A DNA stretch of 64,000 nt from Branchiostoma floridae. Taxonomy: Eukaryota; Chordata; Leptocardii; Amphioxiformes; Branchiostomatidae. The notes under the pieces were generated by a model. It was not told the DNA's origin. It did no database searches and was given only the letters and a program-made list of their open reading frames with translations. Positions within the stretch are counted from its first letter, which is position 1. Each line of letters starts with the position of its first letter. This document shows, one piece after another, positions 1 through 44,177 of the stretch. The DNA lies in the NCBI RefSeq assembly GCF_000003815.2, contig NC_049997.1, positions 8,491,725 to 8,555,724 on the forward strand, written 5' to 3'. The position numbers were made by a program, and so were the translations under genes.

Positions 1-4
1 ATAG

Positions 5-20417: not shown

Positions 20418-23400
20418 ATGGCGGCTACACTCAAACAAGTCGTGGATGACTGCAAAGTGCCTGGGGGTAAGTGGTCACACCTTGATGCACATGAAAACAC
20501 AGGCTAATCCCTTTCTAACGTTGACAGAATTTCAATTACCACTTGCCTAGCTAGTATGTTAATGAATTTGGTACCGTGGAAAAAGTATATATCACACATG
20601 TAGACCAGTATTGCTCAATAGAAATTTAATAAATTCTCAAAATCATTCTTAGGGTAAACTTTTCTTTATATAGATGAAAAATCTTTTTTGTAGTACATGT
20701 TGGTGTTTGAATCAGAAATTTCACCTAAAACTGTAATACTTCATTGAGTTTCATCCTTAACCTCATACTTACAAATCCTTTGTACTCGTATAGTAGATTA
20801 GTTTGTTTGTTTGTTTGTTTGTTTATTCTTTATTTAACCAGGATAAAGCATGTCGCCTGACGGCGTTTTTCAAAGCCCCCTGGGGGGAGAACCCCGAACA
20901 TTTAACGTAACCGGATTTGTGTGAGTTGCCACACATTTCCACAAACTTACAAATGTTATTTTCCAGATTCTTTGTCCTATTAACGATTCTTTGTAGTAGT
21001 AAGATTTTATTGCAAATTCATGCCCATGGGGCTAAATGCAAGTGAACAAAATCAAATACATGTAGTGATTGAAAACAGGTAAATAATCTTAATTCTAACA
21101 TAGAAAGATTAACTGGTTGTATGTACATATAGATTATCGAATACGATTCTAAACCTACATTACTGGGTTTGACTTCTTTGAAAACAGTTGAAAATGAAAT
21201 GTCCCGCATTTTCTATGATATATATTGCTTCAATGATCTTAGCAGAAAGTGTGTCTTTGTGTTTCTTAACAAAAGAAAAGTTTGGTATGATCTCGGACTC
21301 TTTAAATAGTGTGTTTCTTTCAACATCGAACCGGGGACATTCACAGATGAAATGTGTTTTCATTTTCCACTGCATTCGTCGTGCACTGCTAACAAATTAT
21401 TTCATGAGCACGTAACTATTAGCCTTTAAAAAATTCAATCATTACTTATGTTTGCAGAGTTCCTGTCAGAGGGGGCCGAGGTGTTCCTGACCCACACCGA
21501 GGACATGCCTGTGTCTGCCGATGTCTACTGGTCCGCCTTTCAGGACTTCGTGGAACTGCAGCTACACATGGAAGGGCACGAGAACCTACGAGTCCTGAAA
21601 GGTATGAAATTTAGACCTAGGACAAAAACATTGTATTTAGTAGTACGCTTATCCTACTGACCTTAGCAAAAACCTGCCGACCCCAGCGTTTTTAGTCCTT
21701 TGCTAAAAAAAAGGATAAAGATTTTTCGATCTTACATCTGGGTAATGAAATTCAAAGCTTCCTATATAATCTAAACTGATAGCTTTGAACTGTTGATGCA
21801 AGAATATGTAATAAATATTGTATTTTTTGTTCAATTACTTGACTGTGCTTGTACATAATACACAGAGATATCTGAGTGTGTAGATGGAATTGAATCGAAA
21901 TTGATAATGGGGAATCCACTGCTATTGTAACATCACGTCATGCAGATAGAACACGTGACTCAGTAAGCAGTGGATCGTAGGTTGCAGGAAGTGTCCGCTG
22001 AGTCACTTGTTTGTTCATTCCTTGACAAAGACTGGTGCTGTTCAATCGAAAGTTTGGGTGAGTCCAATTTTTGTTGGACATTACATTTTAACTATTGAAT
22101 AATAATGTTTGCTACTTTCTCCTCTCCCCAGGCTATGGGGAAGTGGGCACGGTGGTGTCGTTCTACTACGACCCGACGGACCTGGCCGAGGGGCAGCGGG
22201 ACATGAAGCTGGTGGAGAAGGACGATACCACTCGTACCTGGAGGGTCCAGGAGGCGGAGCCAAACGAGCTGTACAAGATCTACGAGATGACCATCAAGGT
22301 ACTGGCTATCAAAGTTTGCTGAGAAAGTCTTTGAAACACGCTGAACCTTACTCAAATCGATAGTTCTTTCAGTGATTTGTCACAGAAATTATACCTTTCT
22401 ATATTTTAATTCCTTAGCCTAACTACATCGTGCTCCTAGCACAGACCACTACCCCCCCCCCCCCCCAACACACACACACACCAACTAATGCTACGTTCCA
22501 TGTCCATACTGGCAACTTTCGGAAGCGAAAAGCTTGATATGTAAGACCATAAAATACACAGGACGTAAAATGAGTAGAATACTATTTAGTCATGAGCATA
22601 GTTTGTATAACTGGCTAAAAATTAGCCCCTGGCATAAAAACCGTGAAACGCTACCTCAGGTCACAGGTTTGGTGTAAGTTTTGTGGTAGAAAAACCTTAC
22701 GTATGTACCCACATTATGATAACCACTTTTTATACGCAGTTACTATTGCTGTCTCTAGGTTGAAGGGACCGACGCGGCCAAGGTGACCATATCCGTGCGC
22801 TTCGTGTCTGCCATTAAAAATCAGAAGGAGCGCCGACAGGACATTGCCTACCACATGGTTAGTTAACTAAGAATCACTGTCTAAGAAGCAACTATTATAT
22901 TTCATGTCAGAGTCTTGTGGTTGTGGTAGTGATAATCATTACAACCTGTATATACGTGACTACGTCTGTATTTATTTCTGTAAGAATTACAAGATTTCGA
23001 CATATGTGAGGGATTTAAACAGCTACGTTTCGAATATAATTCCGTTCATCAATACTACTTTATCTATACTCCACATTATCATTTTCTATTGTTTTCTTGC
23101 TAATCCTAAATTATTACACTTTATTTTGGAAAGCAAATCCAAGCTCACAGGTGCTATTTTGCAATTATTGCGAAGCACTGTTCTTTTCTGGCTTTGACAG
23201 GTTCATCTGTTGGGAGCTCGCATCCGGGACATTCTGAACTTCATCGTCCGTGAGAAGTTGGGAGGGAAGCACCGCTTCGAACTGGATATCCCCTGTTCTC
23301 GCGAGAAGATGTGGGGCATTGTGGGAAACTTCGATGACGTCACTTGGATACGCGAAGCTACGCGTGAGTTCACGAGATTTGTGACAGTTTTTTTTATCGT

Positions 23401-26400
23401 AACTACACTATGGGCACTCCTAACAGCTTTTTCTGTTGCCGGATACTAAACATTTTAAATTAACAAGCTTGTTGGTAGTACCACCAACGGAGTGATCTTA
23501 CTTTTGCCTAAATCAAATATTAGAATCAGTCAGATGATATTTCCTTCATTCACGACTTGCACACTTCCAATAATTCACAGTGCCAGGATACGGATGTAGT
23601 GACCCGTGAGGTCATAGGGGGAAACCAACTAACAGCTACAGTGGTTACGTGCTGTCTACTTTATACTTCAGTGACCACAAAACTTGTAAAATTCTCAGCT
23701 CTAATAGTAGTAGTACAACTCATTAGTTTACATGCTTTGCCGCCGTTGTACTAAAGGTTTTAGCTGGTTTCACCCTGGTTTTAAAATTCACAGTGCCAGG
23801 GTTACGGATATGGATGTTACTGCCATTGTCCAGGGTGCGAAACCGGGGTGAAACCAGCTACAACTTTTAGTAAGACGGCGGCAAAGCATATAAACTAATG
23901 CATTGTACGACAAATATAGTACTACTATTATTAGAGCTGAGAATTTTACAAGTTTTGTGGCCAGAAGTATAAAGTAGCCAGCACTAACCACTGTAGCTGT
24001 TGGTTGGTTTCCCCCGATGACCTCACGGGTCACTACATCCGTATCCCTGGCACTGTGAATTATGGGAAGTGTGCAAGTCGTAATATTTGATTGCTTGTTT
24101 CCTTGTCTTCTAGACACCGTTGTTGATGGAATCTATCGGACGATCTACTACACCGAGGACCGTTCTCTGAAAGTCCGTCTGGCCTGGGCGGACTCCAGCG
24201 ACTACCTGTTCGTGTATGAAGGCGACAACAGCCCGGACTTCCTGCACTGCAAGTACTACAGGGGCAGGGTAAGGAAGGAAACATAAAAGACACGCTGTTG
24301 GAAGTTTATTGAAATTACGGCCATTTGAATTGTGCACAATATGTGCTTCTCAAAGCCACAAGTTACTTTGACTTTGACTTCACCTTGATTCACATGGATA
24401 ATTATTTCTGTTAGCTGTAACTCTTCCTCTGGTCCTATACAAAGTCCTTTCCGCGCCTGATGGCGCATATGGCGGCGCCCATCTCCGTTTCAGTAGCCCT
24501 GGGCCACACAACTTGCTGTGCAATCACAACAGCAGGGTGCTAGTCCGCTGGTAGTGGTGTTTGTTCAACTTCCATACTCTTTCCCGAATGCTGAGTGCTA
24601 AGCAGAGAAAGCAGCATGTACCATTCTCGCTCTATGGTATAACTCGGTCGGGGATCGAACTCACGACCTACCGAATGCAAGGCGAACACTCTACCCACTA
24701 GGCCATTGCACCGGACATACATGAAGTACAGCATTACTATATTATATGACAGACGGGAAAACTTCAGAACAATCACACTAAAATACATAACCATAAGCAT
24801 ACCGTAAAAAAAAAACAGAAAATACAAGTTCATATCATCAGCTGCCCTGCCATATTCCGCCCATTGATAAGGCATATATTAATTGTTCCTTTTAGTACAC
24901 TGTTTTTAAGTTTTGGCAGTTTGATGCAGTTTGTTGCTATTAACCATCATTGCCTGGAAAGTGAGTTGGTTGTACAATGTCACAGTCATACCTTCAAGTA
25001 TAGTCATGCCTTTAAGTATAGTCATGCCTTCAAGTACCAGAGTTACCAACCTAGGATTGATGTATTCAAAAATTCGTATTCTCCAGAACTATGATCGTAG
25101 AGTGGAATATGTTATCACCAAGCACAGTGGGGGCATCTTCTCTGGATAGTTTTAAAAAACACTCGCAGATAGATGTGCAAAAGCTAGGTGTGACAAGTCG
25201 TTCAGTGTAATATTACCAGATGCTGCCGCGCCGCGTGCCTGCGAAGCTGGTGTGTTACGCCGAATGGCGGTTATACCGGCCATATCTATAAAGATACAGA
25301 TACAGATGTTTGTCGTTACTCCATCCACAGATCCAGTTCTTCGCTGTAAACCCCAACAGGGTCCGTGTGACGTACGACTGCTCCTTCATCCCTGCCGACA
25401 ACAGTCCCATGAAGAAGTTCAAGACACGGTTCGTGAAAGCTCTCAGCAGCCGTATTGCGTGGCTCGAGGTTTGGAAACAATCTCTTCTTAACGTTGCTTA
25501 TTAATAACCATAAATCTACTTACATACAAAACAAGGATTTTTCTTCATATTTTTCTGTGGGGAATGTAGCCTCAAAATACACTGTGCGTTAAGCAATTTG
25601 TCGAAATGTTTTTTTGCTTTTTTTTTGTCTCGGAGTCTTCTCTGTTGTGGTTGTTAAATACTCAAAGTAATCTGTTTGAAGACAGGTGCATTTTACTCTT
25701 AACTGCTTCCTTTTATTGCTGCTCTCATTGTTTGTTTTTTCTATGAAATTATATCAATTTCTTGGTACCGTTTTATTCATAAAAAAAAACTATAAATACT
25801 CTTTACCAGAAAACCTTCAGCGAGCCAAAGCCAGGTGAGGGAGAATCCACCGACACTGCTGTGGGACCTCCCGCCTTCAAGAAGGGCGCGTACTCCACCA
25901 GTAAAAGTGGGGTCGTCAGGGGGCCTCTGGAGGATGTGTGGAAGGTGTTCCGGCCTTTTGGACGCGTGAGTGTTTGTCGTTTGATTGTATCTTTTTCTAT
26001 CGTTCCGTATTCTTCCGAGTTGATGGTATTTTTTACATCCGTAAGGCACTATATATAGCTAGCGGCGAGCTCTTATTAGAACAGAACTGTGTTTAGATCT
26101 ACACAGAACAGTGTGTACCTTTGTGTAAGCTATCCATAACATTGTTTTAGAAACGGGAAAATGGAAGGCAGTTGAAACCTCATAATTTTCATCCTCTTTC
26201 TTATCAAATATCAAGACTAAACTTTTCGACCGAAAAGTCTTTTTAGACGATGCTACTAGTATTCTTAGTTCTTGTACATTTGGGACTTATTTTGCCAGTA
26301 GACGAAAGGGCGGAGAAGGAAGTGCACATCCCCCCTTCACCTTAAAAAGTCTCGTGTAGGCTAGGCAGGCGGATCGCCTAAACCCACTCTGTTTGACCAC

Positions 26401-29400
26401 CATTGCCTTCCAAAACAGATGAATGCCAACACTAGGACTCTCACGAGCAGAAACCTCAACGTCTTAGCTTGATTAGCTTTGTCTTTCTTTGTCTAACCAT
26501 TGTAAAACTGCGCGGCCCACAGGAATGTATGGAGTACTGGAAGATCTATGACAGCATGGAGATCGAGGCACCCGGCATGGACGTAGCGGGCTGCATCCGG
26601 GTGTCCAAGACATCCAAAACAAAAAGGACAATCCGCGAGAGGCTGGAATGGAGGGACGACGACAATCATGTTGAGGTGACTAAGAGACCCTACTAAACTT
26701 TTGAAAATTTGAAACTATATCATTTCCTGCTTATTGATAATTGTAACTGTCCTGTAACTTTCAATATTGACATATCTGTTTATGCATTCAATATTTTTTT
26801 CTCTCTCTAGTGTCATCGTATCTCCATATCCCTCCTCTCCCTTGCTCTCTGTCTGTCCGCAACTGTCTCTCTGTATATACGTACAGAATCTGTGACTGTC
26901 ATGAATTTTGGTCAGAAAACCATTTCCGTACCTACAGATCTACAGTCTGCTGTCCATGGATCCTCCCCCGCCGGTTGCCATGAGCAATGTATACACTACC
27001 GTCACCATGACATCACGTAAGTACGGAAAATACAGCTACAATATGTTTCTTTGGTTCTCTTAAACTCTAAATACAGAAGTGATATGATAGAATGCGGAAA
27101 TTGTACAACATGAGATGCTTGTAATATACCAGTTGACCAATGCAGACTTAAAATAAATCCATGGCAGTTCCTCGTACAGCCGCTTCTTCTCAGAATCCAT
27201 CTAACAAAGTAGATAGTTTTTATTATTTTTAATTTTTAACACCAAAAACAAGCGAAATTAAGCAAATTACATTTTTTTCAACTGTTGTTGTTGATGATGA
27301 TGATACAAGCCGACGCCCTATCTTGTCAATTACAACTAGATGCTAATGGAAATAAGTGCTGGGCGTCCGGCGTTCGTAAGATACTGGAGGAATGCGGTTT
27401 TGCCTACATATGGAGATCTCAAATATCTCTAGGAACAAACCTATCACCTATAACCAACGCCATCAGCCAACGATTAAAGGATATTTACATTCAAACATTT
27501 AGAACCGAAATACACAATGACAACCGGGACAAATCTTTCGGTAACAAATTACGAACCTATAGATTATTCAAGACTACTTATAAAGAAGAAGAATATCTGA
27601 TGGTGAAAAACATACAGCACAGATTGGCTGTCACTAAACTCCGGATTAGTTGCCACAAGTTACATATCGAAACTGGAAGGCACAACCGCACCCCTCTGCA
27701 GCATAGAGTCTGCCAATTTTGTGATCTACAACATGTAGAAGATGAACAGCATTTTATTTTACACTGTAAATTGTACCATAATGAACGGATTGTGCTTTAT
27801 GAATATATCAGAAAAGAGTTCCCATATTTTGAACATCTTAATGCAACGGATAAATTTCTATTTTTGATGCGCCTAGACAAACCCTGTATATCAAACATTA
27901 TATGTTCTTATATCTACACCTGTACAAAGAAGCGAGAAGATGTCGACCATCCTGTTAGCTTAGTACCTTCAACTAGTTAAATTGTATCCTGTTGTTTTTT
28001 CATATATTTGTTACATGTATTCTGTTATCAGTCATGTCTGTTATCAGTGACCTGTACCTAGCCCGTCGAGGCATGAATGTACAATAAAGGTCTTTCATTC
28101 ATTCATTCATTGATGATATCCTTGCTTATCGTCTATTATTTCGCTAAACGTGGTCACTAGGTGCTAAGTGGCTCTTTGTACAGGAACTTTCTTAATTTTT
28201 TTTATTATTCCGTTCACCGGACTGTTGTTCATCTTCTTTTCAGTTGGTGAGAAAGAGACTGAAGTGAAGTTCGAGGGCACCTTTGACGTCAGCGTGTCGT
28301 TTGCCGTGTCCCGTATCCAAGACAACCAGAAGGGAGTTTACATGGCGTGCATCAACGGACTCCAGCAGCTCTTCCACTCCAAGGTCGGGACGCTAGAGGT
28401 CGTTGTTGGGAGTGCCGCTGATCTGGCAAGGACTGACGGCTGGTGTAAGTACTCAATGTTACGTCAGCGACATACTCTTAAAATGAGTAAAGCTAAGCTT
28501 AACTGCAGTGTGCTTTATGTATGATAACTGCATTGTTGTTGATTAAACAATTAGTCATAAAGATTAAATCTTTCCAATCATGTGTTTCCAACCTTACTTA
28601 GTTGATGCTGACCCTTATGTGGTACTCGCTGTGAACGATGGGAAGCCTGTGACCACCAAGGTGTGCAGTTCTACCCAGAAACCCATCTGGGACGAGCGGT
28701 TCCAGCTGCCTGTGACGTCACGGACCAGAAACATCATCTTTACTGTCCTGTTAGTCCGACATCTCAGTCTACTGATTACTAATACGTTGTTTTTATTATT
28801 CCGTAGAACAAACCCGTTGGCCCTTTTTTTATAGCATACTTCTACTGTTACCAACATTAACATTGCAATATACTCTCACCATTTTTGTCGCTAAATCGTG
28901 CCAGGAAATTTCTTGAAAATAAAACTTTCCCGGTTATGTATATCTCTTGTACAACTCCTTACGTCAGGACGCCCCAGCCCAAAATGGTAATATGTCTCAT
29001 AAGAGAAAACTCTTGTTTCATTGAGGCACAATAGATTACGTTTACATGTATTGGATTCAATAACAAGAGTCCCGACAATGAAAACCTACAGCTGTATTGG
29101 TTTTGTACACAGGGACCGGGACACGGTTGGACAGGACGACATCATGGGTACTGCTAACGTCAACCTGGACGAGCTGACGTCAGGCAAGGAGAGGAAGATG
29201 ACTCTGGACGTGCAGGGGGGAGGGACGCTGAACGTCAGGCTGTACCTGAAGATGCACGACAAGCCCAAGGAGGAGGAGGAGGGAGAGAAGCTCATTAAGT
29301 CACTCGCCATCCCGTTCCTGACTCCCGTCGTTCAGAGCGAGATGGACGACATAAAAAAAGAGTTTACCAACCTTATCATGTCGTTCGTTGGCCAAGGTAG

Positions 29401-32400
29401 AGACTTTGTTGATCAATGTTTAAATTCGGGTGTATATAGCATTTTATACATAATGTCCAAGATGACATTTTCAGAAGAGGCCTTAAAATGAGAAACGTAA
29501 CCCATCCTGTACACAATTAGTTAATCATTAATAATACTAGGCGACTACTTTGTGTCATCCCTGTCAAATACGTCATCGTCATCGGTCGACGTGATCGCAC
29601 ATGTTCGCACATGTTTACACACGACTGGGTTATACCGCCCCTTAGTGTGACATACCCTTTCGCTGGCTAATTACAAGACGGGGATGCGCCAGGTCTCCCG
29701 TCCGGTTAAATGATGTAAATCTCCGTGTGGCTGATACGGTAGCAAATACACAGGCGTTCAATATTCATGTCACGACATTGCTTTGAGTACGTACTCCTAT
29801 GAAAGGTATAATTGACAGATAAAAACGGGTAGGCTTTAAGTATGCAACGCTTTATGTCAATATTCCACAGGCCAGAAGTACGAGCTGGACCACATGAAAC
29901 GCTTGCGGACTCACCCTGACGTGCCTCTGGAGGAGTTCCCTGCCGCCTGTGTTCCCATGCCGACACAGGAGATGTTCACTCCCCGCAAAGTTGGACGACT
30001 CATGGAGCGTCTTATGGAGTTCATCGCCTCCCAGGTTATTCCTCCTGTTGTTTGGTAGCAGACAATAAAGATATTTATCGCATTTCGACAAAAAGATAGT
30101 AATAAAAAGAAATAATGTTTTTTCGAAACTATTCTAATGAGATATTGAATGGCCACAATGGCAAAAGATGCAAAATCATATAGCACTTGACGTTTCATGT
30201 TAAGTTACCAACACCTTGTCTTTTACAGCAAGTATACTGTATTGGGGGAATTGAAAGAACTACTGTTGAAAAACAATGAGTATAAATATTATAGTTATTT
30301 TCTGTTACTTCTTCATAAAAGGGTCAGATCATGGTCCGCCTGGCCGAAGTCAAGGGCATCTGGGATCCGTGGAAGGCCAACTTCAGCGGCTACCTTCCTG
30401 CCAACGAGAAGCTGATTGAAGAATGGCAGAAAGACGAGGAGTTCTGCCGCCAGTATCTCCAAGGTTAATGGACACTATTCCCTTGCCACCATAACTAAGA
30501 GGAACATGTAACTGCAACAGAAAAAATATATTTCTCAGCCTTTAGCTGTTTTCAAAGTAAATCTGATAAAGAAGCAAGATGGTGTTGGAGGGAGAAAGTA
30601 TTATTAACACAGACTGATCAAAAGAATTCAACTTTAAGGCACATTATCATATAGCCAGGCGCCGCGGACCAATCAGAAAGCCCCGTTCAACGTTAATTAT
30701 GACGTCGTAACACATAGATTTCGGCCAGGCCGGTGTGTATCGCTTCTCTGATTGGTCAGAATGAATCGACACCGGCACCAGTGTCGATTCTCTCTGACCA
30801 ATCAAAAGGAGCGACACACACAGGAAAGTAAGGTATATGCAGGCATTGGCCAATAAAAAGGAGCGAAACATATGCCAGAGCAGAGGGAATAAGTACAGAC
30901 TGCAAGGGCGAATGGCACCTTCTGTTAATATTGATTTTGTATTATTGTTCTAAAAAGCCTGCAATGTTTAAAATGTTTTCTGTGGAAATTTTGGTTTCAA
31001 AATGCAATCTGTAATCTCCTTACATATGTATGTACAAACGAACAAATGTGAATTTTTAGAGATTAGACAAAGGAACTCACACGTATAGTACCAAGAGATT
31101 TATGCGTCATACAGGAGTTTGCAAGTTTTGGTAGGCTATATGATAATAACGTTAATGACCCGCCTGTTTCTCGGTGTCAATGGTGTCATAAACTTAAGCC
31201 TGGTCCTTTGCTATAACCACCTCATAAAACTACCTCATTCGCCTCGCTCACATCGGTGGTTTTCATAAGGTGGTTATAGCAAAGGACCAGGCGTTATGAC
31301 ACCATATGCACCCCGGGGCGGGTCATTAACCCTCAAAAGAAATTCTCTTGGATGGCCTTCGAAGGGTAAGGGCGATTTTCATTTAGATGAATTATGGTTA
31401 AAAGACTGTTTTCTCCTGATAAAAGCTTAACCAAGAAAAGCACGATTGTCTTTATGCTTTTAATTTCGAATATCAGGCATCAACCCAATGCTGGTGACTT
31501 TGTGTAAGGACCAGAGCCGGATTCCAGCAGAGATGCTTGGTCTGAAAGGACAAGGCAAGACCACGCTGCAGCTCATGGAAGAGAACAGGCTCTTCATCGT
31601 CGACTACGCACCCATGCTCGGCGTTCCTGCTACTCCGGGAAAATTCTTCTACGCGCCGATCGTGCTGATGTACAAGGAAGAGCTGAATGGCGGCAGGTCT
31701 CGGCTGAACATGCTCGGCATCCAGCTGACCAGGGACAAGGGTAAGACATATGAAGAGAACTCGACTATTTTTCATTTTCTAAGAAAATTGACCATTTTCA
31801 TAATCAATACGTTGCTGTAGTGTGTGGATTTTCTCAAGAGCTAGTTCCTGTTGTTTTTTTTTCGTTATAGGCATGAACGAAGTGTACTCCCCTGAAAGTG
31901 CTAAGACTCATCCCAACAAGTACATGTTCGCCAAGATGCACGTGGTGTCGGCTGACAACAACGTGCACCAGTTCCTGTACCACCTGGGCTACACTCACCT
32001 CGCCATGGAGCCTATCGCAGTGTCCCTGCACACCCACCTGCCACCAGACCACCCCATCCACCGCCTGCTGCTGCCCCACTTCAAGGACACCATCGGCATC
32101 AACTACCTGGCCCGCCACTCCCTGGTCTCCAGGATCTTCCCCATCACCGACCCGATGTTCGCTACTTCCACCGTGGGAGGGCTCGTGATGTTCCTCAATG
32201 AGTGGCGCAAGTACAACTTCATGGACATGGCGTAAGTTTCGCAATTTGTTACTGAGCTCCAATCTGCCACTCTTAGACAACTGTCACTTAAAGAATTAGG
32301 ACACATATTTACATTCTATATATCCTTGACAGTTGACATACAGTTGACATGGTAAAATTCTTTCTGTTACCAAAGTTAAACCAATTTGAAAACCAGTATC

Positions 32401-33940
32401 CAATCATTTTCATCAAGTTTCCCTGAAGAGCTGAAATGCCGTGGTTTTGATGAGGCCGGCACTGATGGACTGGAAGGCTACTTCTACCGTGATGACGGCT
32501 TCAAACTGTGGAACGTCTACAAGACGTACGTGACTGGGATGGTCAACCGTGCCTACGCTGATGACCGAGCTGTGCAAGCTGACAAAGGTTCGCTAGAAAA
32601 CATTTCAATATTATAGATATATGTCTCTATGATTTCGTCTTTAGTACAACATTCTCATTAGAATTGATATTGGGCAAATATCAGAAATTTTCAAACAGAA
32701 AGCACAACACTTATACACAATATCAAGTACTCTGTGTTCAAACAGCAACTTTATTTTCAGCCCTTCAGGAATTCTGCAAGATGACCGAAGGTCCCGGACA
32801 TCTTCACGGATTTCCACGCGAGATTTCCACGAGGAAGCTGCTCATCGACTGCCTGACCAACATCATCTTCAACGTGAGCGCGCAGCACTCCGCCATCAAC
32901 TTCCCGCAGTATGACTACTACTCCTTCATACCCAACAGGTGAGAAGGTTATACGTTGTTTTCACGCCACGACACAACCGGGGAATCTAAATTTCAGAATT
33001 TTCTAAAGCAAATGAATGGGTATTAGTTGATTGCAAATTCTCTCTGTAAAACTTACTAACGCCAAGGAGGTTAAAAAAAGGCGTGTATTCTCGTAGCTGT
33101 CGTATTCGTCTGGGATCTCCCAGTAAGGATTTTGTACCCTATGGTCTTTTAACCTCCTTGGTAACGCATAATTCCCAAACCTGCAAGTGGGCTGTCGTAA
33201 CGCTCAATGTTTCGAACTATTCCCTAGGCCTGCCCAGCTGTCGTCCCCAATGCCTGACGGACCGAACGACATGTTGGAGTCCGCTGTACTGAAGGCCCTG
33301 CCTTCTAAATACAACATCACTCTTCAGGTCCTCCTGTCCTACATGCTGTCCATGCCTTCACAGACTGCCATCACCGGGGTAAGCTTAAGATTGTACTTGA
33401 AAGTTGAAACATTCGGTTATGATGTTACTATGTTTTCATGATGTGCCCATCATATAAAAATTTGTTATCTACAACACTTGCTTTCATAGTCATACCATCT
33501 CCGAATGGCCCATATAAAAAAAAAGAGTTTTATCATTTTGTTCTACATAAATAAGGATACGTTTCGGAGCGTATTGTAGCAGATATACATCTTTAGCGTC
33601 TTGATCTTTTAAATGGTTTAATGCTTATTTGCTTGTCGTCGTCCTTTCCTGCAACGTAGACATAATATTATACGAATGTTGTCTCACATAATATCTTACT
33701 GTTGTTTTCTTGCTTGATGAAGTACACAGATAGAAAGTTCTATCAAAACATTTCGTTTTGTGTCTTACTTAGGTAGAGGCCATGAAGGAAGTGTATCCCG
33801 AGGTACATAAGAAGTTCCAGACACAGCTCCAGAACCTCTCCAAGGAGATCAAGGGTCGTAACGAGGGTCTGAAGGCGGAAGGGAAGGTCGCCTACACCTA
33901 CCTGGACCCCGAGAACGTCGCCATGAGCATCGATATCTAA
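20418..33940 (+). CDS. Gene B: (SRPBCC)3-C2-lipoxygenase fusion protein, complete, 21 exons, 1177 aa
   Basis: Predicted cytosolic, membrane-recruited lipid dioxygenase that adds O2 to polyunsaturated fatty acids. Exons: 20418-20466, 21458-21601, 22132-22298, 22759-22857, 23201-23363, 24114-24268, 25331-25468, 25810-25965, 26523-26675, 26938-27016, 28244-28444, 28602-28749, 29113-29396, 29871-30034, 30322-30463, 31477-31740, 31871-32231, 32418-32587, 32761-32938, 33228-33378, 33773-33940; total 3534 nt, frame closed. The start is the ATG in AAAATGG, matching gene D's MAAT N-terminus. There is no signal peptide or membrane segment. Domains by residue: SRPBCC-like 1 (~18-170), 2 (~172-320), 3 (~335-478), C2 (~481-600), LOX (~640-1177). 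Iron ligands: H868, H873, H1055, N1059 and the C-terminal I1177. Ala916 occupies the stereocontrol ('Coffa') position, predicting S products. C2 loop aspartates 499, 505, 552, 554 and 560 suggest Ca2+ binding. LOX identity is certain; the SRPBCC calls rest on fold-like sequence patterns. Confidence 0.93.
20803..20823 (+). repeat. (GTTT)n microsatellite in intron 1 of gene B
   Basis: Five perfect GTTT units followed by ATTCTTTATTTAACCAGGAT, a combination typical of a retroposon end. Confidence 0.8.
21005..21375 (-). pseudogene. LINE C-terminal remnant in intron 1 of gene B
   Basis: The minus frame reads KTHFICECPRFDVERNTLF, the H..C.C-type zinc segment near the C-terminus of CR1/jockey-like LINEs, followed by a 3' end with an AATAAA-type signal (plus strand TTTATTGCAAATTC at about 21008). 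Confidence 0.6.
21458..22857 (+). other. Gene B exons 2-4: first SRPBCC/START-like module
   Basis: These three exons encode residues 17-153. The pattern is an opening strand with VFLTHTEDMPVSADVYWSAF (a strand followed by a helix, like the start of SRPBCC domains), then a long run of alternating strands (GTVVSFYYDP, RTWRVQEAE, YEMTIKV, AKVTISVRFV), then a charged C-terminal helix starting QKERRQDIAYHM that continues into exon 5. SRPBCC folds (Bet v 1, START, polyketide cyclase) wrap a hydrophobic pocket, so this is probably a lipid-binding cup. The assignment is from pattern, not from a profile search. Genes A (exon 4 only) and D carry the same module; gene C lacks it. Confidence 0.62.
23553..24080. 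mobile_element. Long foldback element in intron 5 of gene B
   Basis: Begins CGACTTGCACACTTCC and ends GGAAGTGTGCAAGTCG. Arms of more than 200 bp carry ACGGATGTAGTGACCCGTGA and its complement, AAACTTGTAAAATTCTCAGC and its complement, and GCTGGTTTCACCC. The corresponding gene A intron (640-854) lacks it, so it inserted after the A/B duplication. No transposase ORF. Confidence 0.85.
24435..24714 (-). mobile_element. tRNA-derived SINE in intron 6 of gene B
   Basis: On the minus strand the head has A-box-like GGCCTAGTGGGTAGAGTG and B-box GAGTTCGATCCCCG, followed by a body shared with 48271-48540 (CTTTCTCTGCT, GAGTATGGAAGTTGAAC, GGCGCCGCC or GGCGCC). Two related copies support a SINE rather than a tRNA gene. 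Confidence 0.75.
24955..25300 (+). mobile_element. LINE 3' fragment in intron 6 of gene B
   Basis: Contains PRIDVFKNSYSP and broken EWN / SLDSFK coding, the C-terminus of a LINE ORF2, and a 3'UTR ending in a CTATA-GATACA tail directly before exon 7. The same insertion with the same end is in gene A intron 6, so it predates the A/B duplication. Confidence 0.7.
25810..28380 (+). other. Gene B exons 8-11: third SRPBCC-like module
   Basis: A proline/glycine-rich linker (GEGESTDTAVGPP) leads into GVVRGPLEDVWKVFRPFGR, the strand-helix opening of an SRPBCC fold. Then come KIYDSMEIEAPG, a cysteine-containing strand, a basic hairpin (KTSKTKRTIRERLEWRDD), strands across exons 9-11 and a final helix (QDNQKGVYMACINGLQQLF) directly before the C2 domain. 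This is the only SRPBCC-like module kept in gene C (43548 to about 42200, minus strand). The pattern supports the call, but a structure prediction is needed to exclude another alpha/beta cup fold. Confidence 0.6.
27290..28112 (+). mobile_element. 5'-truncated LINE in intron 10 of gene B
   Basis: Open frame of 231 codons (27285-27980) with CQFCDLQHVEDEQHFILHC, the CCHC-like zinc segment at the C-terminus of LINE ORF2, then a 3'UTR and a (CATT)n tail. Possible target duplication TTGATGAT at 27290 and 28110. Gene A intron 10 is shorter and lacks it. The tail matches 51160-51262. Confidence 0.75.
28384..29270 (+). other. Gene B exons 11-13: C2 domain (in the usual place of PLAT)
   Basis: Begins VGTLEVVVGSAADLARTDGW and continues DADPYVVLAVND, the classic C2 start with SDPYV-like loop 1. 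KPIWDERFQL (the NPxWNE-like strand) follows, then loop 3 DRDTVGQDDIMG and the ending GGGTLNVRLYL. Calcium ligands expected at loops 1 and 3 are all aspartates, so Ca2+-dependent membrane docking is likely. C2 and PLAT are different beta-sandwich families that do the same membrane-targeting job. No PLAT signature is seen anywhere in the protein. Confidence 0.85.
30640..30900. other. Intron 15 segment of gene B with several CCAAT words
   Basis: Contains GACCAATCAG, TGATTGGTCAG, GACCAATCAAAAGGAGCGAC and GGCCAATAAAAAGGAGCGA, plus an inverted GAATCGACACCGG / CCAGTGTCGATTC pair. Probably a dispersed repeat fragment; an internal promoter is possible but not supported further. Confidence 0.3.
31152..31329. 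mobile_element. TIR element in intron 15 of gene B
   Basis: Near-perfect hairpin beginning TTAATGACCCGCC and ending GGCGGGTCATTAA, with GCCTGGTCCTTTGCTATAAC and its complement inside. Length 178 bp. Gene A lacks it at the matching site. Confidence 0.85.
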
Positions 33941-36262: not shown

Positions 36263-36337
36263 AGTTATCGAAATCACACAGTGCACGCACACATATATAT
36301 TATTCAGATGGAATGAGCAATTTTAAAATGACTCAAT

Positions 36338-36505
36338 TTAGGCATTGATGCTGATAGAGACGTTGTCAGGGTCCAGATATGGATACGGGACCTTCCCCTC
36401 CGCCTCCAGCTGGTTGTTTCTAGCCTTGATCTCCTCTGACAGGCAGGAGATTTCTTTGATGAACTCATCGTGGACGTCCGGATACAAATCTCGAATGGCT
36501 GCCAG
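36338..36505 (-). other. Gene C last exon with altered C-terminus (Ile to Ala)
   Basis: Encodes the C-terminal helix and tail equivalent to exon 21 of genes A, B and D. The other copies end MSIDI followed by a stop; this one ends ISINA followed by TAA. The last residue of almost every LOX is Ile (Val in some fungal enzymes), whose carboxylate binds the metal. Alanine keeps a terminal carboxylate but loses the packing side chain. The 3' side of this exon lies only about 75 bp from the end of the duplicated flank of gene B. Confidence 0.85.
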
Positions 36506-39500
36506 CTAGAAGATAATACAGAAGAAGCCAGTTAATTGCACAACGGATTAACGCACATTTCTGTTAACTGCACGGAATCCCAAAATCCCAAATCAGTGCG
36601 GTCCAGGTAGATAACTTCGCATTATCGCACCAGCCGGATAATTGCACGAAATTTACTGGCAAATAGCCATGCAATTAAGCGGCTTTTACTGTAATGGGTA
36701 AATTTTAGGATAATGTGGCAGATTTCTTTAAAAGTCAAACCAAAAGAACTGCGATTCACAAAGCAAAAATGCGCATCTCGCAAGAAATGAATAAATAATT
36801 TCCTGATACGTTGTTGTGGCCATGTGTCATAAAACAAGTAGCATCAAAGTAGAAAACATACATATAGAGCTCAGCTGGTAACGCTATTTTCACTTTAATA
36901 CGAGCGATCCCTGTTGTTGTTTATACGGGGTATTCGACTGCTGGTGCCAACCAGGACGTCAGTAGATTGGATTAAAATTGATATCTAAATTTGCACACCA
37001 AGTTACTGTTTAATGTGTAAATCAATATTTTGCCAAACACCTGCTTTTCGCCTACCACTACGTCACAGTGACATCATCGCGATCGCTCGTTTAGAACTAC
37101 ATCGTGATCTAATCAAATATGGGAAATTTACAGACACACTAAAGTTTGCATGTTAACAGTATGAACATGTAATGCTTGACCTCCATCAGCGGGCTATCGC
37201 TGGGTACACTTAGAAGGTAGATCAGTACGATTTGTAGGGCAGTCAGGGAAGGTGACGGCAATGCGTCATGTATGGTGGACTCCAACATGTCGTTCGGTCC
37301 ATCTGGCATCCACTGAGACAAAGTAGGCGGCCTGTATAATAATCGTCATAGTTTTAAAGCATATACATGGCAGTATACAAAAGTATAATTTTCTCTGTAC
37401 AGTATATGGAAAATCTTAAGCCTCATTACGCATGCTGATATAGCCTCAAAGCAATACTTGATGCTGAGTACTGCTATCGGAAAGAAGGTGTCTATCTGTT
37501 GTAATAGATGACATTTTTTATTGCATTTCACATGTAAGATATACAGTTCACATGAACAAAACAAAAGGACATGGACAAAAACATAAACCACGGATCCAGC
37601 GAGAAAGTAAAAGACAATGGAGGGTACAAATTATTAATATAGGAAATATAGCCTCAAAGCAATACTTGATGCTTAATACTGCTTGCGGAAAGAAGATGTC
37701 CACCTGTTGCAATAGATCACCTTCTTACCTGTTGGGTATGAAGGAGTAGTAGTCGTATTGGGGTAGGTTGATGGCGGAGTGCTGCGCACTCACTGTAAAG
37801 ATGATGTTGGTCAGGCAGTCGATGAGCAGCCTCTTGGTGGAAATCTCGCGAGGAAACCCGTGAAGCTGTCCGGGACCTTCAATCATCTGACAGAATCGCT
37901 GAAGAGCTGTAATTTGTGTATGCAGACTATATCAGAATATGATAAAAAGGCCAAACAGATTGGAGTAACATACTACTGTACTAGTATACACCAATAGTAC
38001 ATACGTGTAATCTTTAGTCATTGAAACAACATATTCGATGTTAACAATAACCTTGATCAGAAGCGACAGCCTGATCATTGACGTAAATCTTGTCCACTAC
38101 CCCATTCACATATGTTTTGTAGATGTTCCACAGTTTGAAGCCGTCATCACGGTAGAAATAGTCCTGTAATCCATCCGACCCTGACTCGTCAAAGCCACGT
38201 CGCTTCAGCTCTTCAGGAAAACTGAAAAATGTAGAAAAAACAAACATTGAAGTCTTAACGGCATCTGCAATACTTCGAAACCATAAAAAGTGGACAGAAT
38301 ACAATGCCTCCCTGTGCATTAGTGGTTTCTTCCGTTGACCATTTGACCTGCAAACTCCTGTCTGATAAACGAGTAGTTCTGCCACATCCGAACTATACTT
38401 TCCGTCACTCTGACAAGTTTGACCTTTTAAGCTATCTTGGCATTCACTTCCTACCACTCCACTGACAGTGGATCAAATCAAAAACAGATGATGGCAAACG
38501 GAGTCAATAAAAGAAATAGCATAGACATGCGGATATGGTGTTTTGGCAACACTATAACACATTGCTATACTCTTTTTAGTAGCACTCTATACATAACGTT
38601 ATGTACACAATATTACACTGAACTTTCCACCACTTTTGTCTCTTCCTGCCGTCATGTTTTTTTAAATCTTAATTTGCTGTTTTGAGCGATCTGTCATTCA
38701 AATCAGGACTAAGAGGCTATGAAAACAAACAGTCACCAAAATTAGAACCATGTAGAATTATTCCAACAAGAAACTTAATGAACAAAATGTAATATAGAAA
38801 AGTTATCAACACAACCCTTACGCCATATCCATGAGACTGTAGTTGGAATATTCATTGATGATCATCCTGAACGCTCCAGCCGTAGACGCAGCATAAAGAT
38901 GTTCAATGAGTGGAACGATACGAGATACAAGAGTGTGGCGGGCCAGGTAGTTGATGCCGATGGTGTCCTTGAAGTGGGACAGCAGCAGGCGGTGGATGGG
39001 GTGGTCTGGTGGCAGGTGTGTGTGCAGGGATACTGCGATCGGCTCCATGGTGAGATGGGTGAAGCCGAGATGAGTCAGGAACTCATGTACATTGCTGTCT
39101 GCCACCATCACGTGCATCTTGGCGAACATGTACTTGTTGGGATGAGTTTTGGCCGTTTCTGGCGAGTACACCTCGTTCGTGGCTAAATGACGACCAAAAA
39201 GAAATACTGGTCTTTGACACATTTCAAAACATGGTTCATTCATTACACAACGCAAAAGAAAACTTTATTTCTAGCACAACAGTATGAAAATTGTGATCTT
39301 AGCAAACTGTTCAAGCTCCCAATTCTTGTTAAACTAAAAACAAAAAGAATATCCTTACTTTTATCGCTAGTGAGTTGGATGCCAAGTATCTTCAGCCGAC
39401 CGTCTCTGCCTGGTAACTTTTCAGTGTACATTAGCACTATAGGCGCGTAGAAACATTTGCCTGGTGTTTTGGGTGCTGCGAGCATGGGTGCGTAGTCCAC

Positions 39501-42500
39501 GATGAAGAGCCTGTTCTCTTCCATGAGCTGCAATGTGGTCTTGCCTTGTGCCTTGAGATCTAGCATCTCGACTGGTATCCGAGACTTGTCCTTACACACT
39601 GTCAGCATTGTCGGGTTGGTTCCTGTAGTGGCAAACATATCAGCAAGGAGCACTTGTTAGTCCATTATAGACTGCGTACAAGTCTCTAAAATTATGAAAC
39701 CTGCATGCCAAGAAGCTAGTATGAAATGTACATTTATAATACATTGAAGATTTCATCATTGTAGTCATCAAGGGCATGCAACATATGGAGTTCTTTAACG
39801 TAAAAACATTGTCCCCAATGTTGTACTGTCAGTGTCCCACTAAGAAGTTGCTAAAGCTAGAAAAAATACGTTTGTACAAACAATTTTGATAAAAATTTAG
39901 ATGTGGCTACTTCTAGACTTATCACTTCTGCCATAGCAAGTTAATCATTTCATGTCTGTTAAGTATAAATTCCATATAGGAGCTTTACCCTGAAGGTATT
40001 GCCGACAAAACTCTTCGTCAGTCTGCCACTCTTTGATCAGCCTCTCGTTGACTGGCATGTAGCGACCGAGGTAGGCCTTCCAGAGATTCCACATCCCCTT
40101 ACTTTCCATCTGGCGAATAGTCAGCCCAGCCTTTGTTGAGACATAACAGTCCCGAGATAGCTCATATACGACATTTACAACTTTGTTTACAACCTCAGAG
40201 TTACTTGTTATGTTATATTTGTCTCAACAAACGTACAGTGTCTAACGTACTACAATCAGCCATGATAATGACGGAGCGCTTAGAAATAAAACTTTATTTT
40301 TTATTGCATAACAATAATTCTCAATTACTTCAGATAGGACAAAGCCTATTACATGTAATAGCCACTTAACCACATCAAACTTCTCGGCAGAAAACATTAT
40401 AGCTTTCGGTAAAGGCTAACTAAAGGATGCCGTCTTTACATCAGCAGTAGTCACATAACGCTTATAAATATAGATCTGTCATCCACTCCGTGGCAGAGGA
40501 TCTTACCTGGGATTGGAAAAAGTTCATTGTTTTTTCCATAATCAGACCAAACTTCTTGGGAAAAAACATCTCAGCTGTCGGTAAAGGCACACATTCGGCA
40601 GGAAGCTCCTCCATGGCAAGATCAGGATGGCTCTGAATCCGGGCTGGAGGTCTGAGCTCATACTTCTGTCCTGATACAATATTAGTAAAATGACGGCTTA
40701 CAAAATAAATATTGTCAGACTTGCCATTTCCTCAAGTTATTGAGCAATAAAAATGAAACATGGACAAATAGGAAAATAATGTATCTCATCAGGAGGCTTG
40801 CCAGACAATTGACTGCTTCTTTTTCCACCATGAAACCGTCGGCGAATAGATCAGGTATATGCTCACTTTATTTATAAACTTAACATCATCATTTGAAACT
40901 TATAGAAAGAAAGTAAAACAGTAGTATTTACAGTTATTAAACAATAGCGCATATTTCCAAACAACACAATTTACCAGATCCCATGAATCCAATAACGAGG
41001 TTGGCGAACTCTTCCTTAATGGCGCCCAGTTCTTCCTTGAAGACCGGGGTTAGGAACGGGATGGAGATCTGTTTGACGAGTTTGTCATCCTCTTCGACGG
41101 CCTCCTTTGGTTTGCCGTGCATCCTCAGGTACAGCCGGACGTTGAGTGTGCCTCCTCCCTGTACGTCTAGTGACAGTTTCTTCTCTTTGTCTGAGGGGAC
41201 TTCATCCAGGCTGACCATCGCTGTGCCCATGACGCCGTCTTGTCCTACCTTCTTCCGATCCCTAAAAGATTTTAACATTAGGTCACGAAAGAATTAAGTC
41301 ATAAAGATAACATTGAGATGAGCATGAAATTATTCACGATGATTTTATCATGCAAATATGTGAAACGTCTGTGTTCATTCAAATTTTACGGAAAATCAGT
41401 AAAATGTTGTCACATTGGAATGGGAATCTCTACAGGAGATGATAGATAAAAAGGAGATATTTCAAAATAGGAATGATTCATTAAGATTGACAAAGCATTG
41501 GGATTAAAAAAGCCCTAGCGGTTGAATACTTACATTATGGTGAAGACAATAACCCTGGTGCGGGAGGTTATTGGTACGATCAGACGTTCATCCCATGCAG
41601 GGGTTGGGGTGCGGCGGCAGATTTTGGTGGTCACAGGCCTGAAGTCGTTCACAGCAATCACCACATACGGGCTGGCATTAACTAGACATAAAACGAACAC
41701 AATGACTGATTGGTTTGCATAAAGATAACAACGTATTTCGATAACATAAAATGTAGTAGAAAGTGTCTGTATTAAAGTTTGAATGAATATTTTCGTTTGA
41801 CGAGTCATGTAGGAGAGCAGATATCATTAATGTCTATATATTTTCGGGGTCACTGAATTGTTAAAATTTCCCTACATTTCAAACCATTGAAAAGTAAAAT
41901 GGACAGTGAACTACGTACATGTACCCCCATTGACTTATTTAATTATCCAACCCTGGTGTCAATGCCGTCCAAATAACCTGCACCCCCTATCTTGTATTTA
42001 GCATATATACGCGAACAACGCGCACAAAATATACGTACCTAATCATCTACTGAATATCAAAATGGTACATTGATATAAATTGCGCTACAACATTTGACTG
42101 TTTTAGTTTTTAGTAGTGAAAATCACTCACACAAGCTGTTGTTCCTCCGAGCCAGATCTGACGCACTCACAACAACGACCTCTAGCGTCCCGACCTCGGA
42201 GGGGAACAGCTGCTGGAGCCCGTTGATGCACGACATGTACACTTCCTTCTGGCTCTTCTGGACAGCGGACAGGCCTAGAGACGTGCTGAGGTCGAAGGTG
42301 CACTCGAACTTGACTTCAGTGTCCTTCTCCCCAACTGCGAAAAAATGTCGAATGTGACATCTAGCTGGTTACTCCAAATTTTCTTCAAGCAATGACTGTT
42401 TCTAAAGGTAAGGTACATACCTCAAAATTTTCGACGGCTGACAGTCCATTTTGGTCACGGAGAATGACCTAGTCTCGATCTCGCGAGAGAACACGAGAAC

Positions 42501-43548
42501 TAGGTCAGGCTTGCGTGGATCATATGCCCCCCCCCCCCCACACACACACACCACACACAAACCTCCTTCTTCGTGAGCAAGATGGACTGTCAGTCGTCGA
42601 AAATTTTGAGCTATGTGCCTAACCTTTAAAAAAAGTCATTGCTTGAATAAGATTTGGAGTAAAAGTATGCAGATGTGACTGATGAACCTCTTCAACAACG
42701 ACATTAAACGGAATTAATAATATATCTTTAGAATTAATTTGTTTAGGAAATAGAAATGTAATATGCAAATTTTGAAAGTGTCTAGCTGCTCCTTACCTGA
42801 TGTCATGGTAACAGCTGTGTAAGTATTGCTGAGGGAAACCGGCGGTTGGGGCTCCATCGATAAGAGACTGTAAATCTGTGTGGCATTATGGTGTGAAAAG
42901 GTGACGTCATATGTCCTGCTTTGATTGATATCATCAACATGTTGATATACGTATTCAGTAGCAGTTGCTAGAAGCCATGTAGATTGCAGAATTAATGTGA
43001 AACCATCTAAAAGTGCACGTTTGTAAGCAATGTAATGCTTACCTAATCACAATATATTTCATATAAACTGCAGTAACTGATTCACCTCAATGTGATTCTT
43101 ATCGTCCCTCCATTCTAACCTCTCCCTGACTTTTCTCTTGGGCGTTACAATGAGCCGGATGCAGCCCTGTACGTCACTTCCGGGGGCCTCGATCTCGATG
43201 TTGTCGAAGATTTTCCAGAACTTCAAGCATTCCTGCAGACAGAAACAACAGAAAGTGTATTGATAACCACAGCAGGGTTTTTTTTTCTTTCTTTTGATGT
43301 TGTTTTTCACAAACTATGTACTAACAGTGACACAGACTACTTACAGAAAACCGTAGATGAAACAGCAATTTAATCTACATTTTATTTCATCTTACCTTTC
43401 CAAAGGGCCGAAATGCCTTCCACACGTCTTGAACTGGTCCCATTACTTTTCCATTGGCGGTTGTGGAGTACTTGCCTTTGTTGAACACAGGGCGTACAAC
43501 TCTTTCCATTCTGCAAGCCTGCGTATTGATAAAGGCTGGTGAAAAGAC
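36338..43548 (-). CDS. Gene C: diverged paralogue lacking exons 1-7 (SRPBCC3-C2-LOX), 871 codons
   Basis: Exons in transcript order: 43548-43396, 43232-43086, 42875-42797, 42334-42131, 41681-41534, 41261-40975, 40670-40507, 40130-39989, 39622-39359, 39182-38822, 38221-38052, 37906-37729, 37331-37181, 36505-36338. These equal exons 8-21 of gene B with identical phases, sum to 2616 nt and contain no stop. No exon resembling exons 1-7 is visible between 43549 and gene D. The start is unresolved: an in-frame ATG lies just upstream of the acceptor (43569) and another inside the exon (about 43510). LOX His pairs are kept (HEFLTH; QHSAIN) and Ala remains at the stereocontrol site, but the C-terminus reads SINA, so the iron-ligand Ile is Ala. 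C2 calcium ligands are mostly lost (NASPY; DRKKVGQDG). An open frame despite strong divergence argues for selection rather than decay. It could be a lipid-binding or altered-activity homologue. Confidence 0.85.
36538..36700. mobile_element. TIR-element fragment in the last intron of gene C
   Basis: Shares GCATTATCGCAC, GCCGGATAATTGCACG-like, GCTGGCAAAT or ACTGGCAAAT and CAATTAAGCGGCTT with 46705-46805. The reverse complement starts CAGTAAAAGCCGCTTAATTG, like ends of pogo/Tigger-type elements. Confidence 0.5.
42371..42660. mobile_element. Foldback element in intron 10 of gene C
   Basis: Begins ACTCCAAATTTTCTTCAAGC and ends with the complement GCTTGAATAAGATTTGGAGT. Arms of about 80 bp include AAAATTTTCGACG and GGACTGTCAG pairs. 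The loop holds a 15-C run and a CA repeat. Confidence 0.75.
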
Positions 43549-43969
43549 CTGGAGGGATAACAAATTCAAAAACAGAAAATATGTTTCCAGGATTTCATTA
43601 AACTGTTTTATGTAATGTAATTACATGTTCAATGTAATTTTTACATATCTCGGGCTATATGCCTACGGCCCATATTTTTTTTTTCAAATAACAACAACTG
43701 TATGTCTGTTATAAGTAAACCTGGTGTAAGTCATAGATTTGCGAATAGATAGTGAAGTGAACAGCAATCTTGTGGTACTAAGCAATAACAAAATGGTATG
43801 AACATGAAAAACTTCTAACAAGCTACCACCTGACAATTTCTCACCTAATCGTCAACACACGTCTTTCCTATTCCCTCCCGGTTACACTGCCAAACTTAGC
43901 CTTTGGATGAAGCACGTATAGTGTAACGTGACGACAATATTATTAGTATCACCTAGATCCCGGCACGAA

Positions 43970-44177
43970 TACTGTAAATGCATTTAAGTCCTCGGGGATT
44001 TAGTTTCGCGGTAGCGGAAAAGGAATTTTCGCGGTGGATTTAATTTCGCTGTAGCACCAGGCACTGTTACACTGCCATGGAAAAATGTTCGCGGTCACCG
44101 TTTTAAATTCGCGGTAAAGTGGCCACCGCGAAAACCGCGAACATTAAACCACCGCGAAAGTTTCTGCCTTTACAGTA
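43970..44177. mobile_element. TIR element with TA ends, TTCGCGGT family
   Basis: Starts TACTGTAAATGCATTTAAG and ends CTGCCTTTACAGTA; the interior is dominated by inverted TTCGCGGT words. TA-type ends suggest a Tc1/mariner-like MITE. A fragment of the same family is at 12099-12149. Confidence 0.75.

What the first reader, a model, noticed from the sequence alone, without database searches (positions are those of the whole stretch)
20418..33940. A lipoxygenase fused behind three SRPBCC/START-like lipid pockets and a C2 domain
Hand assembly of 21 exons gives one continuous 1177-aa protein with three SRPBCC-like modules, a C2 domain and a complete LOX catalytic domain; gene D repeats it (1178 aa). 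I know of no described lipoxygenase with such ligand-binding modules in cis. The best known animal LOX fusion, coral allene oxide synthase-LOX, uses a catalase-like partner. The layout suggests a substrate-capture, membrane-docking and dioxygenation machine in one chain.
Basis: partly seen in the sequence, partly recalled or inferred. Interest (0 to 1): 0.93.

Follow-up and report, generated by a model that had tools for sequence, protein, structure and literature searches.

The report
Bacterial-type five-domain lipoxygenase in amphioxus
An amphioxus gene encodes a fat-oxidising enzyme carrying three lipid-pocket-like modules and a calcium-type membrane-docking module; the same five-part protein occurs in some cyanobacteria, which suggests it once crossed between bacteria and our own phylum.

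Summary

The fusion is not an animal invention: six bacterial proteins, four named as cyanobacteria, are collinear over all five domains, 38-40% identical, and SRPBCC-LOXs of red algae and Shewanella are published (PMC4319731, PMC11507377). The chordate forms (amphioxus, lamprey) group with bacterial SRPBCC-LOXs (100/100), not with 5-LOX-type animal LOXs (AU p 0.004), and gene B shares 0 of 10 and 0 of 8 introns with two amphioxus LOX genes of that type. Transfer between domains of life is likely; its direction is unresolved.

Most likely mechanism: cytosolic S-type PUFA dioxygenase, docked by a Ca2+-binding C2, with SRPBCC modules handling acyl lipid. Activity is untested.

The parts
20418..33940 (+). 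Gene B, 21 coding exons, 1177 aa (exons 20418-20466, 21458-21601, 22132-22298, 22759-22857, 23201-23363, 24114-24268, 25331-25468, 25810-25965, 26523-26675, 26938-27016, 28244-28444, 28602-28749, 29113-29396, 29871-30034, 30322-30463, 31477-31740, 31871-32231, 32418-32587, 32761-32938, 33228-33378, 33773-33940)
   Evidence: identical to NCBI LOC118407228
21458..23257 (+). SRPBCC module 1 (about aa 17-172, exons 2-5)
23258..25830 (+). SRPBCC module 2 (about aa 173-312, exons 5-8)
25867..28386 (+). SRPBCC module 3 (about aa 325-482, exons 8-11), the module shared with the bacterial and lamprey relatives
   Evidence: AF2 helix-grip order of strands and helices; PF10604 in P0009 M3, P0026 M3, P0019
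28381..29260 (+). C2 domain (aa 481-600, exons 11-13) with five Asp at calcium-site positions D499, D505, D552, D554, D560
   Evidence: PF00168 E 7.5e-19; alignment with synaptotagmin-1 first C2; conservation
29378..33937 (+). Lipoxygenase catalytic domain (about aa 640-1177); iron ligands H873, H878, H1055, N1059, C-terminal I1177; Coffa-position A916
1..8794 (+). Gene A, 3' part; the complete gene starts upstream of the window (21 exons, 1175 aa, 93% identical to B)
36338..43491 (-). Gene C, M3-C2-LOX only (no M1-M2 found in 34501-47000; 5' end not fixed), calcium ligands lost, last residue Ala; NCBI model P0017
49578..61787 (-). Gene D, 21 exons, 1178 aa, 94% identical to the B. belcheri tsingtauense entry 'Lipoxygenase 1' (P0006)

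Best explanation
Gene B is an intact chordate member of a mainly bacterial lipoxygenase family built as SRPBCC(1-3)-C2-LOX. It most likely works as a cytosolic iron dioxygenase that makes S-configured hydroperoxides of polyunsaturated fatty acids. Calcium bound by the five-Asp C2 would dock it on a phospholipid surface. The SRPBCC modules would bind acyl lipid and shape access to, or product release from, the LOX pocket. Shown here: gene model, domains, predicted folds, residues, family placement. Inferred: activity, stereochemistry, calcium docking and lipid handling. The gene most likely reached chordates, or left them, by transfer between domains of life before amphioxus and lampreys parted.
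For: Exact gene model identical to NCBI's. Iron ligands H,H,H,N,I complete in B; all five are present in 15 of 22 amphioxus entries, 2 of 3 lamprey and 57 of 66 bacterial/other entries, the exceptions being gaps in incomplete entries or a changed last residue. Ala at the Coffa position in 21 of 22 amphioxus (1 gap), 3 of 3 lamprey and 66 of 66 other entries. All five calcium-site Asp in 14 of 22 amphioxus entries, aligned in B with the first C2 of synaptotagmin-1. SRPBCC folds. In red-algal PhLOX deletion of the SRPBCC region partly lowers peroxidation; the full deletion abolishes hydroperoxide-lyase output, while deletion of the first barrel alone raised it (section read). Of 8 cyanobacterial loci whose neighbours I looked at (L009, L010, L037, L067-L071, three of them contigs of 5-33 kb), Pfam confirms a patatin phospholipase next to the LOX in 2 (L009, L069), an aldo/keto reductase in 2 (L037, L068) and a fatty-acid desaturase in 1 (L009). 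A lancelet CYP74-clan enzyme that converts fatty-acid hydroperoxides is published (passages). Tree and AU tests, intron comparison.
Against: No activity, calcium or ligand data. pTM of the whole-protein model is only 0.55, so domain packing, and any channel between modules, is not predicted. SRPBCC folds also serve as hormone receptors and cyclases, so lipid as the ligand is a guess. The chordate clade has only 94/77 support in the careful tree; in the quick tree of 87 rows the one lamprey row did not join amphioxus (unresolved fork), and the bacterial rows formed their own branch (99). So chordates are not shown to nest inside bacteria, and the direction of transfer is open. Long branches were flagged in both trees. 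The patatin link rests on 2 of 8 loci.
Confidence: 0.65

Rival explanations
1. Ancient vertical inheritance: an early animal or eukaryote already had an SRPBCC-C2-LOX beside a canonical LOX, and most lineages lost it.
For: The chordates form their own branch beside, not inside, the bacteria in the best tree. Lampreys and amphioxus both have it.
Against: The only animals returned by three searches were Branchiostoma and lampreys, though each search scored only about 8000 candidates sharing most words with the query and so can miss relatives. Close members lie in bacteria, and the five-domain order is shared with cyanobacteria. This rival needs many losses.
Confidence: 0.27
2. The SRPBCC modules are not substrate carriers but a rigid regulatory or scaffold region, or a receptor that tunes the LOX by binding a small ligand, as in ABA receptors.
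For: Among the best structural matches of M1 and M2 are ABA receptors and polyketide cyclases. In PhLOX the removal of the region changes products and only partly lowers oxygenation.
Against: The order of domains and the neighbouring patatin genes in 2 of 8 loci fit lipid handling.
Confidence: 0.35
3. Exons 1-11 and 12-21 belong to separate transcripts, and the fusion is an assembly of two genes.
For: One cyanobacterium carries M1-M2 as a separate upstream ORF, so a split form exists in nature, though split at another place.
Against: Single uninterrupted bacterial ORFs carry all five domains. Genes A, B, D and F have the same order, and NCBI's model is identical.
Confidence: 0.03
4. Bacterial contamination of the assembly.
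For: Similarity to bacteria.
Against: 21 exons on a 17-Mb contig, nine family loci on four contigs of the assembly (C5, C12, C17, C19), and entries from several Branchiostoma species and three lampreys.
Confidence: 0.01

Closest known systems
Bacterial 'SRPBCC family / lipoxygenase family protein' with five domains (Trichocoleus P0026, P0038; Coleofasciculus P0027; Tolypothrix P0039; unnamed P0036, P0037 of the same branch)
   Same: SRPBCC x3-C2-LOX collinear with gene B, 38-40% identical over about 1177 residues
   Different: No introns; in the three checked (P0026, P0027, P0039) the first loop-1 calcium Asp and the second loop-3 Asp are absent; I saw no functional study
PhLOX/PhLOX2 of Pyropia haitanensis and SvLOX of Shewanella violacea (PMC11507377, PMC4319731)
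   Same: N-terminal SRPBCC domain before a LOX domain; deletion data for PhLOX
   Different: Described with one SRPBCC domain; for PhLOX it is modelled as two barrels, the second of which may be an unrecognised C2, since the Shewanella relative P0031 has PF10604 then C2; their sequences were not compared directly
Canonical animal lipoxygenases (5-LOX, 15-LOX-2, 12-LOX; coral 8R- and 11R-LOX)
   Different: A PLAT domain (common knowledge) rather than a C2 (no PLAT hit here), no SRPBCC; human 5-LOX and two amphioxus LOXs lie across a 100/100 branch
Coral allene oxide synthase-lipoxygenase (3dy5)
   Same: A natural LOX fusion
   Different: The partner is a catalase-like haem enzyme (common knowledge); no such match here
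Di-domain polyketide aromatase/cyclases BexL and StfQ (4xrw, 4xrt)
   Same: Tandem SRPBCC pair, best Foldseek matches of M1-M2 (E 3.3e-16 and 2.2e-13)
   Different: 8-10% identity; act on polyketides; no LOX

Membership tests
Lipoxygenase superfamily (PF00305) | LOX domain match and fold | tested here: met
Lipoxygenase superfamily (PF00305) | Iron ligands His, His, His, Asn and C-terminal Ile | tested here: met
   H873, H878, H1055, N1059, I1177
Lipoxygenase superfamily (PF00305) | Oxygenates polyunsaturated fatty acids | not testable with these tools
   needs expressed protein
SRPBCC-LOX family (PhLOX/SvLOX type) | SRPBCC domain N-terminal to the LOX domain | tested here: met
SRPBCC-LOX family (PhLOX/SvLOX type) | Shared ancestry of the LOX domain with bacterial SRPBCC-LOXs, a Shewanella one included | tested here: met
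   one branch 100/100 holds 41 of 41 family rows, Shewanella sp. P0031 among them
SRPBCC-LOX family (PhLOX/SvLOX type) | Hydroperoxide-lyase or allene-oxide-synthase side activity as in PhLOX | not testable with these tools
   PhLOX data only
SRPBCC-LOX family (PhLOX/SvLOX type) | Direct sequence similarity to PhLOX or SvLOX themselves | not tested
   their sequences were not in hand
Canonical animal (PLAT) lipoxygenase | N-terminal PLAT domain | tested here: not met
   Pfam at E <= 1 gives C2, no PLAT
Canonical animal (PLAT) lipoxygenase | LOX domain groups with 5-LOX-type animal LOXs | tested here: not met
   AU p 0.003 (amphioxus) and 0.004 (amphioxus plus lamprey) against it; groups named after the trees were seen
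SRPBCC / helix-grip fold | Helix-grip fold in M1 and M2 | tested here: met
SRPBCC / helix-grip fold | Same for M3 | tested here: met
   PF10604 8.3e-7 (P0009 M3) and 5.8e-11 (P0026 M3); matching order of strands and helices in the model; not fold-searched alone
SRPBCC / helix-grip fold | Binds a hydrophobic ligand | not testable with these tools
   needs expressed protein
Calcium-binding C2 domain | Five Asp ligands in loops 1 and 3 (positions recalled from synaptotagmin-1) | tested here: met
   D499, D505, D552, D554, D560 aligned with the first C2 of 2r83
Calcium-binding C2 domain | Calcium-dependent membrane binding | not testable with these tools
   needs expressed protein
Catalase-like AOS-LOX fusion | Catalase-like haem domain | tested here: not met
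   no such Pfam match at E <= 1

The most novel reading that the evidence does not exclude
A complete five-domain oxylipin enzyme, lipid-carrier modules included, crossed between bacteria and the chordate line before amphioxus and lampreys parted. In amphioxus it gained introns, multiplied to at least nine genes and acquired a full calcium site in its C2, which turned a bacterial phospholipid-oxidation enzyme into a calcium-switched signalling oxygenase working beside an independently inherited LOX set of the 5-LOX type. M1-M2, a separate upstream ORF in one cyanobacterium, would be a detachable acyl carrier for the LOX.
Probability: 0.35. Interest if true: 0.86.

Novelty: new variant of a known kind. 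Interest (0 to 1): 0.68.

Why it matters
Amphioxus and lampreys stand near the base of the lineage that evolved leukotriene and related signalling. A second, bacterial-type lipoxygenase line there, apart from the 5-LOX type, means that amphioxus oxylipin data cannot be read as ancestral vertebrate chemistry without separating the two. The family also offers a natural series (one to five SRPBCC modules, calcium site present or absent, fused or split) in which the role of lipid-pocket modules in steering lipoxygenase catalysis can be tested directly.

Tried and rejected
Pfam and NCBIfam on gene B's own modules gave no SRPBCC match; resolved with homologues and fold. Foldseek and VIA on the whole model listed only LOX structures, so M1-M2 was folded alone. 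An hhalign comparison of modules gave no output (a format error, seen) and was dropped. Plasmid search: 11 records, 7 ordinary LOX matches, 3 annotated SRPBCC proteins and one unannotated stretch; none covered 80% of the query. Amphioxus plus cyanobacteria without lamprey as one clade was rejected (AU p 0.013); with lamprey it was not (p 0.30). The careful tree used 47 rows: 42 of the 87 rows of the quick tree were left out, among them four of its ten outgroup rows (amph_C14, P0086, L038, L039), and P0089 and P0090 were added. Patatin beside the LOX in a third locus (L067, 191-aa ORF) looked right by eye but had no Pfam match and is not counted; nor are two hydrolase-like neighbours (L037, L070) without a Pfam match. 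Only nine chosen neighbour ORFs were scanned. No paper on an SRPBCC-C2-LOX of animals was seen in nine full-text searches; of most papers listed I saw only the listing, and the library lacks most subscription journals. A 2014 study of arachidonic-acid metabolism in amphioxus (Yuan et al., recalled, not read; six papers holding its title words were listed) may mention these genes.

Full report
WHAT IS THERE. The window lies on contig C19 of a 513-Mb genome. Gene B is letter-for-letter the database protein P0001, named LOC118407228 of Branchiostoma floridae, so the animal is the Florida amphioxus. I rebuilt gene B from the sequence: 21 exons, 20418-33940 on the plus strand, 20 introns all GT-AG, 1177 aa ending in SIDI. 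A spliced aligner of my own, given that protein, returned the same exons and then gave gene D as 21 exons and 1178 aa on the minus strand (61787-49578). Both lengths in the finding are exact.

RESIDUES. Iron ligands H873, H878, H1055, N1059 and I1177 are present, and the Coffa position is Ala916, which by general knowledge of the family suggests S products. The C2 carries five Asp aligned with the first C2 of synaptotagmin-1 (the role of those positions is recalled). All five occur in 14 of 22 amphioxus entries, 0 of 3 lamprey entries (one lacks the region) and 0 of 66 bacterial or other entries, 60 of which have a gap at the first site. Among the entries aligned, the full calcium site is therefore an amphioxus feature, and gene C has lost it. 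Gene C also ends in Ala instead of Ile, as does the B. lanceolatum entry P0016.

RELATIVES. A first search found 18 Branchiostoma entries and one environmental protein with SRPBCC, C2 and LOX. Searching with that protein gave 69 proteins, itself included: Myxococcota, cyanobacteria, Shewanella, many unnamed, and a river lamprey. Searching with the lamprey protein gave 10, itself included: three lamprey species, one Branchiostoma entry, named cyanobacteria and two unnamed proteins, and no other animal. Each search scored only about 8000 candidates that share most words with the query; the first one missed the lampreys, so absence elsewhere is weak evidence. Six bacterial proteins, four of them named as cyanobacteria, are collinear with gene B over all five domains at 38-40% identity. 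The lamprey entries scanned have one SRPBCC module. Two genomes of a cyanobacterial order hold the five domains as one ORF of 1154 and 1155 aa. A third, G193, holds M1-M2 as a 323-aa ORF directly upstream of an M3-C2-LOX ORF. In an even sample of the phylum 2 of 386 genomes matched P0026 at E <= 1e-60, one of the two being the centre of the sample itself. In a sample of one order 122 of 388 matched at E <= 1e-40, but nearly all of these match only the LOX part at about 30% identity; eight genomes, three of them known beforehand, gave clearly stronger matches, E 1e-120 or below.

AMPHIOXUS FAMILY. Besides A, B, C and D, five more loci carry the family: E (C19; its database model P0005, 1509 aa, has five SRPBCC modules, of which my assembly covered the last three), F (C12, 1179 aa), G (C5, divergent, about 39% identical), H (C19, only its 3' part assembled) and I (C17, P0012). 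Pfam's LOX model gave 48 exon matches genome-wide, so ordinary LOX genes also exist.

PHYLOGENY. In a careful tree of 47 chosen LOX domains all 41 family members form one branch (100/100) apart from human 5-LOX, two amphioxus LOX genes of that type and three ordinary LOXs of bacterial type. Amphioxus (100/99) and lampreys (99/99) join with 94/77. The bacterial side is weakly supported (84/44). In the earlier quick tree of 87 rows lamprey and amphioxus did not join, and the bacterial rows formed a branch at 99. So chordates are not shown to nest within bacteria. Holding the chordate members with canonical animal LOXs is rejected (p 0.004); amphioxus with cyanobacteria but without lamprey is rejected (p 0.013); chordates with cyanobacteria is not rejected (p 0.30). 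The groups for these tests were named after the trees were seen, and long branches were flagged. Gene B shares 12 of 20 intron positions and phases with divergent gene G, but 0 of 10 and 0 of 8 with two amphioxus LOX genes of the 5-LOX type; the models of G and of those two are approximate. Together this supports a separate origin of the family in chordates, most simply by transfer between domains of life; I put this near 0.6, with direction open.

MECHANISM. Shown: a LOX with complete iron ligands, a C2 with a full calcium-site pattern, three predicted SRPBCC folds. Inferred: calcium docking, lipid binding, S-dioxygenation. Indirect support: in red-algal PhLOX removal of the SRPBCC region partly lowers peroxidation; the full removal abolishes volatile products, while removal of the first barrel alone increased them (PMC11507377, section 2.4 read). 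Of eight cyanobacterial loci whose neighbours I looked at, two have a patatin phospholipase beside the LOX, one of these also a desaturase, and two have an aldo/keto reductase; in the other four none of these was confirmed. A lancelet CYP74-clan enzyme that converts fatty-acid hydroperoxides is published (PMC8124189, passages read); whether this LOX feeds it is unknown. So a phospholipase-LOX-CYP74 or reductase route is the most economical picture.

COMPARISON AND NOVELTY. LOXs with an N-terminal SRPBCC domain are in print for Pyropia and Shewanella violacea (PMC4319731 and PMC11507377, passages read). The claim that no such LOX is described is therefore wrong. PhLOX's region was modelled by its authors as two beta barrels; the Shewanella relative P0031 has PF10604 followed by C2, so their second barrel may be a C2, which I could not test on PhLOX itself. 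I found no paper on the animal members in nine full-text searches, but a B. belcheri tsingtauense entry named 'Lipoxygenase 1' exists in UniRef. I rate it a new variant of a known kind.

Noticed in passing
window 36338-43491 (-): Gene C and the B. lanceolatum entry P0016 end in Ala instead of the iron-binding Ile; gene C has also lost calcium-site Asp residues and modules 1-2, which suggests a changed function.
   Followed up: partly
L004, L012-L013 (C19:8432000-8451999): Gene E's database model (P0005, 1509 aa) has an extra M1-M2 pair, giving five SRPBCC modules.
   Followed up: partly
L037:8231-12150 (G193): A cyanobacterium with M1-M2 and M3-C2-LOX as two adjacent same-strand ORFs: a natural split form of the fusion.
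   Followed up: partly
window 27240-27980 (+): A 246-aa open frame inside intron 10 of gene B, with a weak match to the zinc-binding tail of a reverse transcriptase (E 0.015, below cut-off): perhaps a LINE remnant.
   Followed up: partly
window 23552-24081: Large nested inverted repeat in intron 5 of gene B (arms 25-78 nt, 86-97% complementary), like a non-autonomous DNA transposon.
   Followed up: partly
P0029, P0032, P0035, P0052, P0060, P0061: Six members of the cyanobacterial branch end in Thr instead of Ile at the iron-binding C-terminus.
   Followed up: no
L038 (Acaryochloris plasmid pMB04) 2701-7449: An ordinary LOX gene lies just upstream of a Tn3-family transposase gene on a plasmid typed as mobilizable, a possible route for LOX gene mobility.
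   Followed up: no
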